NCBI GenBank assembly: GCA_019114205.1
Contig: DXFY01000041.1
Location: forward strand, 1 to 33,500
Direction of reading: 5' to 3'
Origin: Candidatus Tidjanibacter gallistercoris
GTDB taxonomy: Bacteria; Bacteroidota; Bacteroidia; Bacteroidales; Rikenellaceae
Length of the DNA stretch: 33,500 nt
The translations under genes were made by a program, and so were the position numbers. Every line of letters starts with the position of its first letter. Positions within the stretch are counted from its first letter, which is position 1. This document shows positions 27,943 through 33,500 of the stretch, piece by piece. Under the pieces are notes generated by a model that saw only the letters and a program-made list of their open reading frames with translations, had not been told where the DNA came from and made no database searches.

Positions 27943-29244
27943 TTACGCTCCTTTGGAGGTCATGATATCGAGAATAAGCCGGTCGGTCTGCGTCATGCCC
28001 TCGCGGCCTATCTTCGTAAGATTCAGTATGGATTTGTCCACATCCTCGTCGATGATGCCCTCGGCGGCGGTCACGCACCTGTGCTCCATGGCGAGCATGG
28101 CCGAAAGTACCGACGTGGAAATGCCGCTGGCCACCTTGAGGGCGCAGCTCGGCTTTGCCCCGTCGCAAATCATCCCGGCAAGGTTGGCAATCATGTTCTT
28201 CACGGCATACGACACCTCATCGTAGCCGCCGCCCATCAGGTAGGTGATGCCGCAGCTCGAACCCGTTGCAGCCACCACGCATCCGCAAAGCGCCGAAAGC
28301 CGGCCGAGGCTCTGTTTGATATAAATGACCGTCAGGCTGCTGAGAACGAGCGCCCGGATTTTCCGTTCCTCCGACGCTCCGGACTGCTCGGCATAAACCA
28401 CCACCGGCAGCGTGGACGATATGCCCTGGTTGCCGCTGCCCGAATTGCTCATCACGGGTATCATCGCCCCGCTCATGCGCGCGTCGCAGGCACCCGAAGT
28501 ATAGGACAGGATGCTCGACAGGATACCGTCGCCCATGATGCGGCGTTCCATGTCGCCCCGCAGCAGCCGTCCAAGCGAATGGCCGTAATCGCCCGTGAAG
28601 GATACCTCCGCGGCATGCTTGTTCATGTCGGCCGCCTTCCGGATGAATTCCAACTCGTCCAGCGGAGCGGTATCGGCGAAGTCGAAAACCTTCTTCAAAC
28701 TCAGCGTACATTCGCCCCCGGCGCAGGAAGCGCCCGCTCCGGCACACTTTTCCAGCAGGACTTCCCCGTTGCGTTCGATACGTGTAAATCCCGTATGGCT
28801 CTTCTCGATAATGGCCAGCGCCCGGTCGTCTCCCGCAGCCGCCTCCACTTCGATGTACAGGATGTCGCAGCCGCCCTGCTTGAGCCCTATCCCGATGGGG
28901 GTGCTCTCCATGTACTTGCGCCCCTCCTGCACATCGGCGGGCTTTACGTCGCGCAGCACTTCGAGGCCGTATTCCGACTTTCCGAACAGCGCCCCCAGCG
29001 CCACGGCGATGGGAAGCCCTATCATGCCGTCCGTACCGGGAATGCCCACGCCCATCGCATTCTTGAGCATGTTGGCGCTCAACTGAACGGAAATGCGTTC
29101 GGGCCGACGGCCGAGCACCTCCGCAGCGCGCGCCGTACAAAGCGACACGGCAATCGGTTCCGTACACCCTATTGCGGGCACTATCTCCCTGTTCATCAGG
29201 GCTATTATCGAACTGCGTTCGGCAGGTGAAATCTTACAAGCCAT
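27943..29244 (-). CDS. cyuA: L-cysteine desulfidase family protein (CyuA/YhaM, UPF0597)
   Basis: This cytoplasmic iron-sulfur lyase family degrades L-cysteine to pyruvate, ammonia and sulfide. The 433-residue protein is related to serine dehydratase alpha chains: AIGCTEPIAVSLC near the start, SANMLKNAMGVGIPGT, the loop IPVMSNSGSGNQGISSTLPV, and the C-terminal GMICDGAKPSCALKVASG. Cysteines in the first and last of these are the likely [4Fe-4S] ligands. Length is typical. It stands alone between a promoter box at 29266 and the long hairpin. In gut Bacteroidota this activity contributes to sulfide production. Confidence 0.93.
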   Translation of the reverse strand: MACKISPAERSSIIALMNREIVPAIGCTEPIAVSLCTARAAEVLGRRPERISVQLSANMLKNAMGVGIPGTDGMIGLPIAVALGALFGKSEYGLEVLRDVKPADVQEGRKYMESTPIGIGLKQGGCDILYIEVEAAAGDDRALAIIEKSHTGFTRIERNGEVLLEKCAGAGASCAGGECTLSLKKVFDFADTAPLDELEFIRKAADMNKHAAEVSFTGDYGHSLGRLLRGDMERRIMGDGILSSILSYTSGACDARMSGAMIPVMSNSGSGNQGISSTLPVVVYAEQSGASEERKIRALVLSSLTVIYIKQSLGRLSALCGCVVAATGSSCGITYLMGGGYDEVSYAVKNMIANLAGMICDGAKPSCALKVASGISTSVLSAMLAMEHRCVTAAEGIIDEDVDKSILNLTKIGREGMTQTDRLILDIMTSKGA

Positions 29245-29265
29245 ACATCATATCTTTATTGCTTG

Positions 29266-29273
29266 CAAATATA
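29266..29273 (-). promoter_or_regulatory. -7 box of the cysteine desulfidase promoter
   Basis: TATATTTG on the minus strand (29273-29266) is a perfect TAnnTTTG element 22 bases upstream of the ATG. No good TTTG lies at the -33 spacing. Confidence 0.55.
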
Positions 29274-29464
29274 AACTTTTTCCCGAAAACATGCGGTTCG
29301 GCAACGCACGATTCGGACACAACGGCCGGGGACGGATGCCGCCGGTTTCTACCGGAAAAAGATTACCTGCGCAGTCCCTAAGTTTCGGAACATTCAGCAT
29401 ACGACTGTTTGCGTGAACGACAATACAGACAATTTTAGTCGATAAGCCGGCAAAGCTATTTTTC
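29274..29464. other. Spacer at the border of the AT-rich islet
   Basis: Base composition drops from GC-rich to clearly AT-rich within this stretch (around 29420). A 41-codon plus-strand frame (29291-29416) has no recognisable content. I see no gene. Confidence 0.45.
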
Positions 29465-29481
29465 TTATGATTATATCATAA
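29465..29481. repeat. 17-base palindrome
   Basis: TTATGAT-TAT-ATCATAA is a perfect dyad with 7-base arms. It lies just beyond the terminator of the small-peptide gene. It could be a regulator site or part of the islet border; no gene start is adjacent. Confidence 0.35.
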
Positions 29482-29491
29482 CATCAAAACT

Positions 29492-29519
29492 GTATCCACC
29501 TTTTTAGCAAGGTGGATAC
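29492..29519 (-). terminator. Terminator downstream of the small peptide gene
   Basis: A perfect 11-base stem (GTATCCACCTT 29492-29502 with AAGGTGGATAC 29509-29519) encloses a 6-base loop, 91 bases after the peptide stop codon. On the minus strand it is followed by AGTTTTGATG, a short U-tract. Confidence 0.7.
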
Positions 29520-29610
29520 GAATATTCTATGCTCTCGCCACACTTTATAAGTCAGACAGACACACGCTGCAAACTCGCAGGTTTTCAAACCGCTGCAATT
29601 CTAATTCTAT

Positions 29611-29790
29611 TTAGTAACAGTAAAAGTAGGTAACCCGCGATTGTGCAAAATCCGTACAATTATTTGCTGGTTGATTGGTTTGGTCTACTGCCGTAACGAC
29701 TTTGCCTCCGCCCAATACGTAGCTCTGTCTGTTCCGTTCCAATACTTCGATGGTCTCCTTTCCGAAATTCCAACTTCGTTTTTTCGTCAC
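29611..29790 (-). CDS. Double-glycine leader peptide, putative RiPP/natural-product precursor
   Basis: This short ORF starts with GTG (29790) and ends at TAA (29611), 59 residues. The leader reads TKKRSWNFGKETIEVLERNR and ends YVLGGG at 24-29. The pattern 'KK.....GKETIxxLE...(9)..GGG' closely resembles leaders of the Bacteroidota GG-type natural-product/class I lanthipeptide precursor families. The predicted core, residues 30-59, starts KVVTAVDQTNQ, has cysteines at 45 and 58, several Thr/Ser, and an aromatic end TYFYCY. There is an in-frame stop upstream of the GTG and no ATG, so GTG is the only reasonable start. The gene lies 177 bases behind the S41 protease gene on the same strand and has its own terminator. 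No modification enzyme or ABC transporter is within the window. It could be a bacteriocin-like or signalling peptide, a protease substrate, or an orphan precursor. Confidence 0.75.
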   Translation of the reverse strand: MTKKRSWNFGKETIEVLERNRQSYVLGGGKVVTAVDQTNQPANNCTDFAQSRVTYFYCY

Positions 29791-29967
29791 GGTTAGTTGC
29801 TTTTAAAATTGACTTATGTTTTTTTCAATTATATCTCCACTAAAAATAAGAATATAATGCTGAAAAAAACAAGCAACTACCGATGTTTTTCAATATTTCA
29901 TATAATTACTTCTCTTAAATTCAGTTGCCGTCGTACAGAACAAACAATTCCTGAAATACTTCGTCTA
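29791..29967 (-). promoter_or_regulatory. AT-rich leader region of the peptide gene
   Basis: The gap between the S41 protease stop and the peptide GTG is strongly AT-rich, with TTGC near 29878 and TATATTC near 29855 on the minus strand as possible promoter boxes about 17 bases apart. The GTG has no Shine-Dalgarno; the leader just before it is A-rich (AAAAGCAACTAACC), as is common for Bacteroidota translation. Separate transcription from the protease gene is possible but not proven. Confidence 0.3.
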
Positions 29968-31815
29968 TCAAGGCAGCATCCGTATGTATTCCAACCCTTT
30001 TCCCAACACCTCGTCCCGTCCGTCCAGATAGCCTTCCAGGGTCGGTTCGATGTAGATATCCGGCAGGACGCCGACACCGTGATGTCGGCTGCCGTCCGCG
30101 TTGGTGACGTAGTTGGCCGTCAGATTAAATGGAAATACCGGCAAGCGGTACTGCGTCGCATCGCCGTTCGTACCGCACGACTCGGAACCGACGATGGTTC
30201 CCAACTCATAGCCCTTGACGAGTATGAGCACCGTCTCGGCCCAACTCATCGCATGATAGTCGCTGAGGAATACCACGGGAACGTTCAGGCGGGGAGCAAC
30301 GGGTTCGAGAAATTCGTTGCTCTGCACGTAACGTACCTTCTCGCGGTTCGGAAAACACGTTACGGGTGTGGAAATGAAGGACGTCGGCAGCGGTTCCTCG
30401 GTCAGATGCCCCAGCACCTTGTCGAAGTCGAGCATGGGATAACCGCGCAGGTCGAAAACGATGCCCCGCATCGAATGGAGCGTATCGAGTGCCGCGGCGA
30501 ACTCTTCGTAGTTCGCGTTGCGTTGGCAGGGGCGTATGACGGCTATGCCGTCGTCCGTGTAGGAGATGAACGGCCCTTCTTCCGGTCGTGAAACGTAAGG
30601 GGCCGGTAACGATGCCACCAATGTATCCTGTACGATATCGCCCGACGGAGTGCTGTAGGTGACTGTCATCTCGGAACCGCAATAAAGATACGAAGCTATG
30701 GTACGCGGTAATGCCGAATACAGAGCGCTGCGGCGGTTGCTCGAATTTACCTGCCGCGCGGCATCGTCCAGAAGTTCGTGTATGTCTCTGCCGTCTACTT
30801 TCTGCAATATACTGTTGACCGGTATGTCGGCTCCGCAATCGGGTGCGACCGCTTCGATGATTACGTTATTGTCTACGATATTCAGGTGAAGCGGTAAATA
30901 GGAATACGACACATACATTCCTCGAAGTTTCGTTTTCGGCCAGGACATCTGCAATATCAAGTGTTCGTCGCGAACGTCGTTCATGGCTTCGAGTATGGTT
31001 TCCGCATGCAGCAGAATATTTTTTTCAATGTATTCCGTTTTCTCTATTTCCCATACCGAACCCAGTATTTCCGTTAGCTTTTCGTTCCAGTCGGGTATGT
31101 CGATTTCTGCATAGGGATAGAAATGCTGTATGATATTCCAACGGGTAATGATGTCCGCCAATCTGAAATTTCTGTTGTCATACGGGTAAATGTATTTCCC
31201 GCTCTGCTGTCTAATGTCTTTCCACTCTTTCTTTGCGGTTTTCAGCAGTCGGTCGGTCTCCTTTTTCGAGAAGGCGTCCTGCCGCTCGGCATGCGGCAGG
31301 TTCAGATAGAACCCGTCGGCTACGGGGTAGGAATAAACCCTCCCCGCCTGCGGCGTATCGGGTGTACCGTCGCAGGCACGAAGGGTGATATAGAACGGGT
31401 CATAGTCGCGGTACTCCTTGTATAGCATTCGGACCACTTTGGGAATTTCTATTTTCCCGCCTCCCGTGTGTTCTTTATAGTAATATTCTTCGGGCACGCC
31501 TGTCAACGGCCCTTGTCCGGCCTGCGGTTCGGCCGTAAGCGTAGCATTAGGGGCGAGCACGGCCATATCGGCCATTACCTGCTGCAGGTCGCCCGTTTCG
31601 GAAAGTCGGTTCACGAAGTGGAGACAGACGGCAAACCAATCCTCCTCGCTCCAGTCCGATGTATAAGGATTCGGCGAGTAGTAGCGCACGATGCCGTAGG
31701 TGCGGGCGAAAGCCGCGTAGTCCGATGTATCGACAGGGGTGTTGTCTGTGCCGGCCGCTCGTGAAGAGAATACGGCCGATAATACACACAATGAAATAAT
31801 AATTATTCGTTTCAT
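29968..31815 (-). CDS. Secreted S41-family serine protease
   Basis: The 615-residue protein has a signal peptide (MKRIIIISLCVLSAVFSSRA) and no lipobox, so it is periplasmic or secreted. An N-terminal helical/beta region of ~210 residues is followed by a helical bundle, a PDZ-like segment (~300-350, NSILQKVDGRDIHELL) and the S41 catalytic core: GIVFDLRGYPM (~451-461), nucleophile Ser524 in AMSWAE, then IVGSESCGTNGDATQYRLP and the family tail DGSRHHGVGVLPDIYIEPT...GRDEVLGKGLE. This is the S-x-A-E branch (IRBP/tricorn-like), which lacks the Lys of the CtpA branch. H285 (RDEHL) may complete the site. It has a strong promoter with an operator-like dyad and is followed by the GG-peptide gene. Possible roles: processing or destroying peptides. 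Confidence 0.88.
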   Translation of the reverse strand: MKRIIIISLCVLSAVFSSRAAGTDNTPVDTSDYAAFARTYGIVRYYSPNPYTSDWSEEDWFAVCLHFVNRLSETGDLQQVMADMAVLAPNATLTAEPQAGQGPLTGVPEEYYYKEHTGGGKIEIPKVVRMLYKEYRDYDPFYITLRACDGTPDTPQAGRVYSYPVADGFYLNLPHAERQDAFSKKETDRLLKTAKKEWKDIRQQSGKYIYPYDNRNFRLADIITRWNIIQHFYPYAEIDIPDWNEKLTEILGSVWEIEKTEYIEKNILLHAETILEAMNDVRDEHLILQMSWPKTKLRGMYVSYSYLPLHLNIVDNNVIIEAVAPDCGADIPVNSILQKVDGRDIHELLDDAARQVNSSNRRSALYSALPRTIASYLYCGSEMTVTYSTPSGDIVQDTLVASLPAPYVSRPEEGPFISYTDDGIAVIRPCQRNANYEEFAAALDTLHSMRGIVFDLRGYPMLDFDKVLGHLTEEPLPTSFISTPVTCFPNREKVRYVQSNEFLEPVAPRLNVPVVFLSDYHAMSWAETVLILVKGYELGTIVGSESCGTNGDATQYRLPVFPFNLTANYVTNADGSRHHGVGVLPDIYIEPTLEGYLDGRDEVLGKGLEYIRMLP

Positions 31816-31830
31816 AAACTATATGATATT

Positions 31831-31862
31831 TTTAAGCATTTGCCTAACAGGCAATGCTTAAA
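31831..31862 (-). promoter_or_regulatory. Hairpin in the 5' leader of the S41 protease gene
   Basis: TTTAAGCATTTGCCT (31831-31845) pairs with AGGCAATGCTTAAA (31849-31862), a 14-pair stem with one bulged T and a 3-base loop, 16 bases upstream of the ATG. It lacks a U-tract on the minus strand. It contains the same AGGCAA/TTGCCT words as the dyad at 31898-31910, so it may be a second binding site for one regulator, or an RNA element controlling translation. Confidence 0.5.
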
Positions 31863-31897
31863 CTCAATAACATGGCTCATTAATTTAGGTTGATAAA

Positions 31898-31910
31898 AGG
31901 CAATTTGCCT
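31898..31910. promoter_or_regulatory. Operator-like dyad at the protease start site
   Basis: AGGCAA-T-TTGCCT is a 13-base perfect dyad placed where transcription should start (about 7 bases beyond the TAGATTTG box). Overlap with the start point suggests a repressor site. The word recurs in the hairpin at 31831-31862. Confidence 0.5.
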
Positions 31911-31913
31911 ATT

Positions 31914-31945
31914 CAAATCTAATAAGACGCAATATAAAATACAAA
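31914..31945 (-). promoter_or_regulatory. Promoter of the S41 protease gene (TTTG-N20-TAGATTTG)
   Basis: On the minus strand TTTG (31945-31942), 20 bases, then TAGATTTG (31921-31914) is a perfect match to the Bacteroidota consensus. The leader to the ATG at 31815 is about 90 bases, long enough for the regulatory hairpin. Confidence 0.8.
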
Positions 31946-32017
31946 CAATATACTCGTAAATTGTTCTCTGTCCGGCTTCTTGTTCGGCCCCCTCCGTTCA
32001 GTCCGCTTTTCCTTCGA

Positions 32018-33415
32018 CTATTCCCGCTCCGGAGCGGTCGTAAATGTCAGGTTCCTGCAGCTGTCGACAAGAGAATGACAATTATCGGCGAGGAAAAATA
32101 TGGGATTCATTTGCAAACCGTAAGTACACCCCGGTTCCAGCTTGTCCGGTTCCAGCTCTATCGCCAAACGGTAATCGTCGATATAATACGCCCTGCAGGC
32201 CGGAAGCAGTTTCACGTTCTCGTCGTCGCTGCCCGTAGTACCGCTGAAACTGTACCCGCCGAACATCGGCTGCGAAAACGTTATGATTATCTTGTCGTAA
32301 CCGGTTATGTCCGAACCCATCGCCGGATATACCTCCGTAATATACGGACTCCTCATCTCGTACTCTTTGACGACGGTCTCGATGTTGTCTGCGGTATAGT
32401 TGAAGAATGCCACGATTTGCGGCATAAAATCATCTATATGCGGATACTTGTCGCGGTTTTCGTAGAAGTGTTCCATAAAGGCCATGCTGCGCCCCATCCA
32501 AATATAGCCCTTGTCATCCGCTATTTTCAAATATACAGGGACATTCGCATCGTCTCTCTCTTTGTAATACATCATGGTACACAATTCATTGAACCATTCG
32601 CCTATCATGCTCTCAACAAAACCGTAACCGGCTGCACGCTGCTTGTCGTAGACATGCGGCAGTATCTTTTCGGCATACGGTATCATTAAGCTATAATACC
32701 CTCGTATGATATCGTTGCTGTAATGATGGCATAGCTCGTGCATCAGTATATATCCCGCAGTCCCCGTTGTATCCGGCAATCCCTCGGCGTCGGACGCTAT
32801 GCCCATCAACACGCCCTCCGAAATCATGTAATTGGACGGACCGTTTATCATACTGACATAGAATTTAATGTCTTCATCATAAGGTTTGCCGTAAAACTCC
32901 TCGAACCACGCCGTATCGACGCTGTTCACCAACGAATCCATGCGTTGTTCGGCTATGGCATAAAGGTCTCTGTGACTGTCGAACCATTCCTGAAAATCGC
33001 TCTCCTTATAAAAGCGGTTGGCCATCCGGATGAATTTGTCGAACTGTTCGGCCGTCCAACGATCATCGTATTTTTCGATGTCTTTTAATTTGTACTGTGG
33101 CCGAAGACGAAATTTCCCGTCTTTCAACTCCAGTAATTCAGCTGCTGTAGATACGGCATCGTAACTGATATGATACTTTTCCCGAAGTTCGCGTACATAC
33201 TCGATAGGTTCGCTGTTTTCGTATCGGGCGAACGTATTGACTATGTCCTCTTTGTAACTCGGAATCCTACACTGGGAATACTCCGGAGCGCCGATAAGGG
33301 CGAACATGAGGCTCGTCAGCTCGAAACGTTCCTCTACTTTGCTGCGTGTCTGCGAGTATGCCGTCTGGCTGAATACCAGTACGCATAACGACAAAATCAG
33401 AATCACTCTTTTCAT
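32018..33415 (-). CDS. Secreted HExxH metalloprotease-like protein (DUF4932-like)
   Basis: The protein has 465 residues from ATG 33415, chosen because MKRVILILSLCVLVFSQTAYSQ is a signal peptide; the longer frame upstream is spacer. A zincin motif HELCHHYSN (H226-E227-x-x-H230) follows a helical domain with NGPSNYMISEGV. A downstream glutamate in SMIGEWFNELC is a possible third ligand. This layout resembles the poorly characterised DUF4932-type secreted proteins of Bacteroidota. From about residue 360 there is an Ig-like beta domain (PYITEVYPAMGSDI, then IIITFSQPMF) of the SbsA/Ig-like kind. It has no lipobox. It is 202 bases upstream of the S41 protease gene on the same strand. Confidence 0.75.
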   Translation of the reverse strand: MKRVILILSLCVLVFSQTAYSQTRSKVEERFELTSLMFALIGAPEYSQCRIPSYKEDIVNTFARYENSEPIEYVRELREKYHISYDAVSTAAELLELKDGKFRLRPQYKLKDIEKYDDRWTAEQFDKFIRMANRFYKESDFQEWFDSHRDLYAIAEQRMDSLVNSVDTAWFEEFYGKPYDEDIKFYVSMINGPSNYMISEGVLMGIASDAEGLPDTTGTAGYILMHELCHHYSNDIIRGYYSLMIPYAEKILPHVYDKQRAAGYGFVESMIGEWFNELCTMMYYKERDDANVPVYLKIADDKGYIWMGRSMAFMEHFYENRDKYPHIDDFMPQIVAFFNYTADNIETVVKEYEMRSPYITEVYPAMGSDITGYDKIIITFSQPMFGGYSFSGTTGSDDENVKLLPACRAYYIDDYRLAIELEPDKLEPGCTYGLQMNPIFFLADNCHSLVDSCRNLTFTTAPERE

Positions 33416-33500
33416 ACGGATAAATATTAAAAAGGTAATAGTATTGAATAAACGTTCAGCATCCGCTGACCGCATGGTTGATAAAGTTCGTTCAGGCCGC

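What the first reader, a model, noticed from the sequence alone, without database searches (positions are those of the whole stretch)
29611..29790. Overlooked GTG-started double-glycine precursor peptide
Seen in sequence: a 59-codon ORF in an otherwise empty AT-rich gap, with a basic N-terminus, the leader GKETIEVLE, a GGG end, and a 30-residue core with Cys45, Cys58 and the tail TYFYCY. Known: leaders with 'KETI..L' and a terminal GG are typical of Bacteroidota natural-product precursors, usually exported and cleaved by C39-type transporters. Inference: this is an exported or modified peptide. The GTG start and small size explain why gene callers would miss it. The few Thr/Ser and the aromatic tail make it unlike a standard lanthipeptide core; disulfide or radical-SAM crosslinks are alternatives.
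Basis: partly seen in the sequence, partly recalled or inferred. Interest (0 to 1): 0.82.

Follow-up and report, generated by a model that had tools for sequence, protein, structure and literature searches.

The report
Orphan double-glycine peptide beside S41 protease
A tiny unannotated gene next to a secreted protease gene looks like the precursor of an exported peptide of the Bacteroidota class I lanthipeptide kind, but the genome lacks the modifying enzyme and the exporter such peptides normally need, so it is probably an orphan or relic of such a locus.

Summary
The ORF is real as described: minus strand, 29790 to 29611, GTG start, 59 aa, in a 723-base AT-rich gap, with a hairpin terminator 92 bases after its stop. 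Its leader, WxFxKETIxxL...VLGGG, is a degenerate form of the LxLxKx5L...GG leader of Bacteroidota class I lanthipeptides (PMC7268733). No curated model matches it and no full-length homologue was found. Chance is disfavoured: a leader profile trained without KETI-type sequences finds 0.25 to 1.2 such ORFs per random Mb. The strongest support is context. The S41 protease 177 bases upstream belongs to a lineage whose relatives elsewhere sit beside double-glycine lanthipeptide precursors, LanC and LanB. Best reading: a genuine but orphan double-glycine precursor, a relic or satellite of a lanthipeptide-type S41 locus. A chance ORF remains the main rival.

The parts
29611..29790 (-). 59-aa GTG-started ORF: basic N-terminus, leader W-x-F-x-K-E-T-I-x2-L-x7-V-L-GGG, 30-residue core with Cys45 and Cys58
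   Evidence: leader profile
29704..29790 (-). leader part (residues 1-29, up to GGG)
   Evidence: alignment to the class I lanthipeptide-type leaders
29492..29519 (-). intrinsic-terminator-like hairpin (11 bp stem, then AGTTTTGATG) 92 bases after the peptide stop; can also act on the + strand
29968..31815 (-). secreted S41-family peptidase (signal peptide by eye, conserved Ser524 and Glu527), 177 bases upstream of the peptide, same strand; relatives lie in lanthipeptide loci
   Evidence: Pfam PF03572 E=6.7e-10; loci; tree; active site
32018..33475 (-). DUF4932 protein with HELCHH motif (putative secreted metallopeptidase), upstream of S41; role in the locus unknown
   Evidence: PF16286 E=3.8e-69; motif read
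27943..29244 (-). L-serine/cysteine dehydratase-like gene (SDH_alpha); conserved downstream border of the lineage-specific block, not part of the system
   Evidence: conserved in 19 of 23 genus genomes; nucleotide synteny ends 37 bases upstream of its start

Best explanation
The ORF is a genuine small gene encoding a double-glycine-leader precursor peptide of the LxLxKx5L...GG type used by Bacteroidota class I lanthipeptides. It was acquired with, or left behind beside, an S41 protease of the lineage found in such loci. In those loci LanB and LanC dehydrate and cyclise the core, a C39 transporter cuts after GG and exports it, and the S41 protease acts outside the inner membrane on the product or on competing peptides (inference). 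In this genome LanB and C39 are missing, so the gene is most likely an orphan: a relic, or a satellite precursor that cannot be matured in the standard way by its own cell. Shown: the ORF, the leader pattern, the S41 relationship, and the absence of LanB and C39. Inferred: translation, the leader's function, the role of S41, and relic status.
For: (1) The KETI-x2-L-x7-[VI]-x-GG pattern, scanned over 84,980 species, hits about 60 short Cys-rich precursors with MKK-like starts. Eight of nine tested pass the NCBIfam class I lanthipeptide leader model NF038153 and the ninth falls just below its cut-off. Neighbours in several loci are Pfam LanB and LanC. The literature names LxLxKx5L plus GG as the Bacteroidetes class I LanA leader (PMC7268733). 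The window has W and F in the two L positions. (2) It is the best leader match of all frames in the window and scores above 40 Mb of random sequence with the KETI-trained profile. (3) Homologues of the S41 gene, fetched without reference to peptides, proved to sit beside double-glycine peptides that pass NF038153 plus LanC (G775, L189), beside LanC (G674, L188), and inside a complete LanA x3/S41 x2/LanC/LanB/C39 cluster (G756, L193; C39 by motif only). Two KETI-leader loci fetched by pattern also carry S41 relatives. The window S41 falls in the same 9-row clade (support 100/100) as three of these. (4) Same strand as S41, 177 bases downstream, with a terminator 92 bases after its stop.
Against: No curated family matches the peptide (NF038153 and TIGR04149 give nothing for it genome-wide). 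On the leader columns not fixed by the pattern it scores between true members and chance matches (-3.2; members mean +11.5, chance matches mean -15.3). Codon usage is not gene-like. Its nearest S41 relatives (G001, 52% identity; G110) have no such peptide beside them. LanB and C39 are absent from the genome.
Confidence: 0.58

Rival explanations
1. Chance ORF: an AT-rich untranslated stretch between S41 and the dehydratase gene happens to contain a 59-codon frame with a KETI...GG look.
For: No homologue in 149 relatives, 84,980 species (8-mer scan), viral contigs or plasmids; codon usage is non-coding-like; GTG start; no curated model matches; the leader is intermediate on unconstrained columns; the finding was picked from many windows.
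Against: Random sequence gives 0.25 to 1.2 comparable ORFs per Mb, about 2e-4 to 9e-4 in the 723-base gap. The ORF lies beside an S41 gene whose relatives flank such peptides, and a terminator follows it.
Confidence: 0.27
2. Working precursor with non-standard maturation: the peptide is exported and cut without C39 (for example by the adjacent secreted S41 or DUF4932 protease) and forms a Cys45-Cys58 disulfide, giving an unmodified bacteriocin-like or signalling peptide.
For: Two putatively secreted protease genes lie upstream on the same strand. The S41 catalytic Ser and Glu are conserved. The ORF is intact with its own terminator. Bacteroidales peptides with GG leaders and disulfides exist (bacteroidetocins, PMC6671954).
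Against: No transporter is identified. In the complete relative cluster S41 coexists with a C39-like protein, so S41 does not obviously replace it. Bacteroidetocins have 15-16 aa leaders, four Cys and a double-glycine-peptidase transporter, unlike this peptide.
Confidence: 0.13
3. Radical-SAM-modified double-glycine peptide (TIGR04149-like).
For: Bacteroidales double-glycine peptides are often rSAM targets (PMC10352776).
Against: TIGR04149 gives no match to it. The only SPASM proteins in the genome are one beside a sulfatase (maturase-like) and one resembling the rSAM/lipoprotein system, both on other contigs without a double-glycine peptide.
Confidence: 0.02

Closest known systems
Bacteroidota class I lanthipeptide precursors (LxLxKx5L leader with GG; NCBIfam NF038153 lant_leader_L1a)
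   Same: basic N-terminus, hydrophobic-x-hydrophobic-x-K-E-T-I-x2-L, 18 residues from K to GG, short Cys-containing core with Thr/Ser; a related S41 protease gene is adjacent in some loci
   Different: W and F instead of L and L; no match to NF038153; only two Cys; no LanB or C39 in the genome; no LanC among the window genes scanned
Bacteroidetocins (class IIa-like Bacteroidales peptide toxins)
   Same: small double-glycine-leader peptide with Cys in a Bacteroidales genome
   Different: bacteroidetocins have 15-16 aa leaders, four Cys and a transporter with a double-glycine peptidase domain in the cluster (PMC6671954)
TIGR04149 rSAM-modified double-glycine peptides
   Same: GG leader, Bacteroidales
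   Different: no match to the model; no suitable radical SAM enzyme nearby or found in the genome

Membership tests
NF038153 class I lanthipeptide leader (L1a) | score over curated cut-off (22 bits) | tested here: not met
   no match at E<=10 in hmmscan nor in the whole genome; true members scored 20 to 55 bits
Bacteroidota class I lanthipeptide | LxLxKx5L leader ending in GG | tested here: inconclusive
   W-N-F-G-K-ETIEV-L...GG: K, x5, L and GG present; the two L positions are W and F
Bacteroidota class I lanthipeptide | LanB dehydratase in the genome | tested here: not met
   PF04738 absent at E<=1, while LanB of related clusters is detected at E 1e-107 to 1e-150; genome 99.56% complete
Bacteroidota class I lanthipeptide | LanC cyclase | not tested
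   none among the window genes scanned; no whole-genome search was left for LanC
Double-glycine peptide processed by C39/PCAT | C39 peptidase domain in the genome | tested here: not met
   PF03412 absent at E<=1; 8 of 14 control genomes positive
TIGR04149 rSAM-modified RiPP | model score and a peptide-targeting rSAM/SPASM enzyme | tested here: not met
Bacteroidetocin | 15-16 aa leader, four Cys, double-glycine-peptidase transporter | tested here: not met
   29-residue leader, two Cys, no C39

The most novel reading that the evidence does not exclude
A minimal S41-plus-double-glycine-peptide module, without LanB or C39, in which a secreted S41 protease replaces C39 in releasing an otherwise unmodified, disulfide-bonded peptide.
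Probability: 0.08. Interest if true: 0.65.

Novelty: new variant of a known kind. Interest (0 to 1): 0.36.

Why it matters
If the gene is real, it shows that Bacteroidota genomes can keep orphan lanthipeptide-type precursors that gene callers and curated leader models miss, and that the neighbouring S41 protease can serve as a handle for finding them. The recurrent placement of this S41 lineage beside class I lanthipeptide precursors, LanC and LanB in several Bacteroidota loci points to an untested protease role (leader trimming, product activation or self-protection) that can be assayed directly. One full-text search listed no paper holding both 'S41 peptidase' and 'lanthipeptide' (15 of 117 shown).

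Tried and rejected
Full-length homologue searches in 149 relatives, genome contigs, viral contigs and plasmids: nothing; weak hits lie in long unrelated frames or contain stops. The strict leader pattern in 199 other family genomes and 394 other phylum genomes: no other hit, so the leader type is rare among close relatives; it is rich in Chitinophaga, Taibaiella, Chryseobacterium, Aminicenantes and others. Rfam on the gap: only a sub-threshold match. C39, LanB, TIGR04149 and peptide-type SPASM enzymes in the genome: absent. The idea that S41 replaces C39 in related clusters was weakened when the G756 cluster proved to contain both. dN/dS was not possible because no second copy of the peptide exists in the collections. 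No structure prediction was run: a 59-aa orphan without an alignment would give an uninformative model.

Full report
WHAT IS THERE. The frame opens only four codons upstream, so the GTG is the only start that gives the leader. It lies in a 723-base gap between an S41-type peptidase gene (29968-31815) and a serine-dehydratase-alpha gene (27943-29244), all on the minus strand, with a DUF4932 gene carrying an HELCHH motif upstream. A hairpin with an 11-bp stem and a short T-rich tail sits 92 bases after the stop; without the peptide gene, that terminator would lie about 450 bases beyond the end of S41. The window is the whole contig. The gap is AT-rich. Codon usage of the ORF does not look like that of neighbouring genes.

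IS THE LEADER MORE THAN CHANCE. About half of the matches are short ORFs with MKK-like starts, the motif mostly at residue 12 to 16 and Cys-rich cores; the rest are unrelated proteins. Nine of the short peptides were tested: eight pass NCBIfam's class I lanthipeptide leader model NF038153 and one is just below it; the window peptide matches nothing. Neighbours in several of these loci are Pfam LanB and LanC. Walker et al. 2020 (PMC7268733) describe LxLxKx5L followed by GG, often with a C39 protease, as the Bacteroidetes class I LanA leader. The window leader is WxFxKx5L...GG. On columns not fixed by my pattern it scores between true members and chance matches. A profile trained only on members without the strict pattern gives 8.4 to 8.5 bits; random sequence reaches that 5 to 24 times in 20 Mb. 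The KETI-trained profile gives 14.6 to 14.7 bits, not reached in 2 x 20 Mb, but it is biased because the pattern came from this peptide. The leader alone is therefore suggestive, not decisive.

CONTEXT. The upstream block (DUF4932, S41, peptide) is lineage-specific: synteny with the nearest genome (94% identical dehydratase protein) stops 37 bases upstream of the dehydratase start. Homologues of the S41 protein were collected from 393 Bacteroidales-level (same order) genomes without reference to peptides. When those loci were used as background for the leader profiles, the top hits were double-glycine peptides beside the S41 genes. In G775 the order is peptide, S41, LanC. In G674 it is S41, LanC. 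In G756 it is peptide, S41, two peptides, a second S41, LanC, split LanB and a C39-like protein cut by the end of the stretch, recognised by motif only. The three of these peptides that were tested pass NF038153. Two loci fetched by leader pattern (L113, L157) also carry S41 relatives; that is two of 52 loci with leader peptides, so the S41 gene is an occasional, not a constant, companion. In a tree of 23 S41 proteins the window protein groups with G001 and G110, inside a nine-row clade (100/100) that holds three lanthipeptide-associated rows; the association has arisen or been lost several times and the label is only weakly clustered (56 of 500 shuffles as low). Ser524 and Glu527 are conserved across the aligned S41 proteins. 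G001 and G110 have no such peptide next to S41.

MACHINERY. The genome (99.56% complete, 77 contigs) has no Peptidase_C39 and no LanB, and nothing over the cut-off of TIGR04149 or NF038153. Its two SPASM radical SAM proteins are one next to a sulfatase (maturase-like) and one whose sequence and neighbour resemble the radical SAM/lipoprotein system; the latter naming is from my own knowledge, not a model match. LanC was not searched genome-wide.

CONCLUSION. The most likely reading is a real, orphan double-glycine precursor of the lanthipeptide-leader type, kept beside an S41 protease of a lineage that occurs in such loci but without the machinery to mature it in the usual way. Whether it is a relic, a satellite or a working peptide with other maturation cannot be decided here. 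A chance ORF is the main rival. As a family claim, 'class I lanthipeptide' fails two tested features (model score, LanB), and 'C39-processed' fails one; 'works like a double-glycine precursor' survives with moderate confidence.

Noticed in passing
L189 7797-11631; L193 7999-19901; L188 2758-6236; L113 936-4363; L157 1277-7943: S41-family peptidases related to the window's S41 recur inside Bacteroidota class I lanthipeptide loci, directly beside or between double-glycine precursors and LanC/LanB; a possible overlooked accessory protease.
   Followed up: partly
window 29245-33500: The DUF4932-S41-peptide block is lineage-specific: nucleotide synteny with close relatives stops 37 bases upstream of the dehydratase gene, and the relatives examined have different genes there.
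   Followed up: partly
L043 1566-2654 (G000:C3): SPASM radical SAM gene resembling the rSAM/lipoprotein system, preceded by small lipoprotein-like ORFs; naming from sequence resemblance only.
   Followed up: no
L046, L048, L062, L096, L115: Candidatus Aminicenantes genomes carry KETI-type double-glycine Cys-rich precursors, several per locus in L046 and L048, outside Bacteroidota.
   Followed up: no
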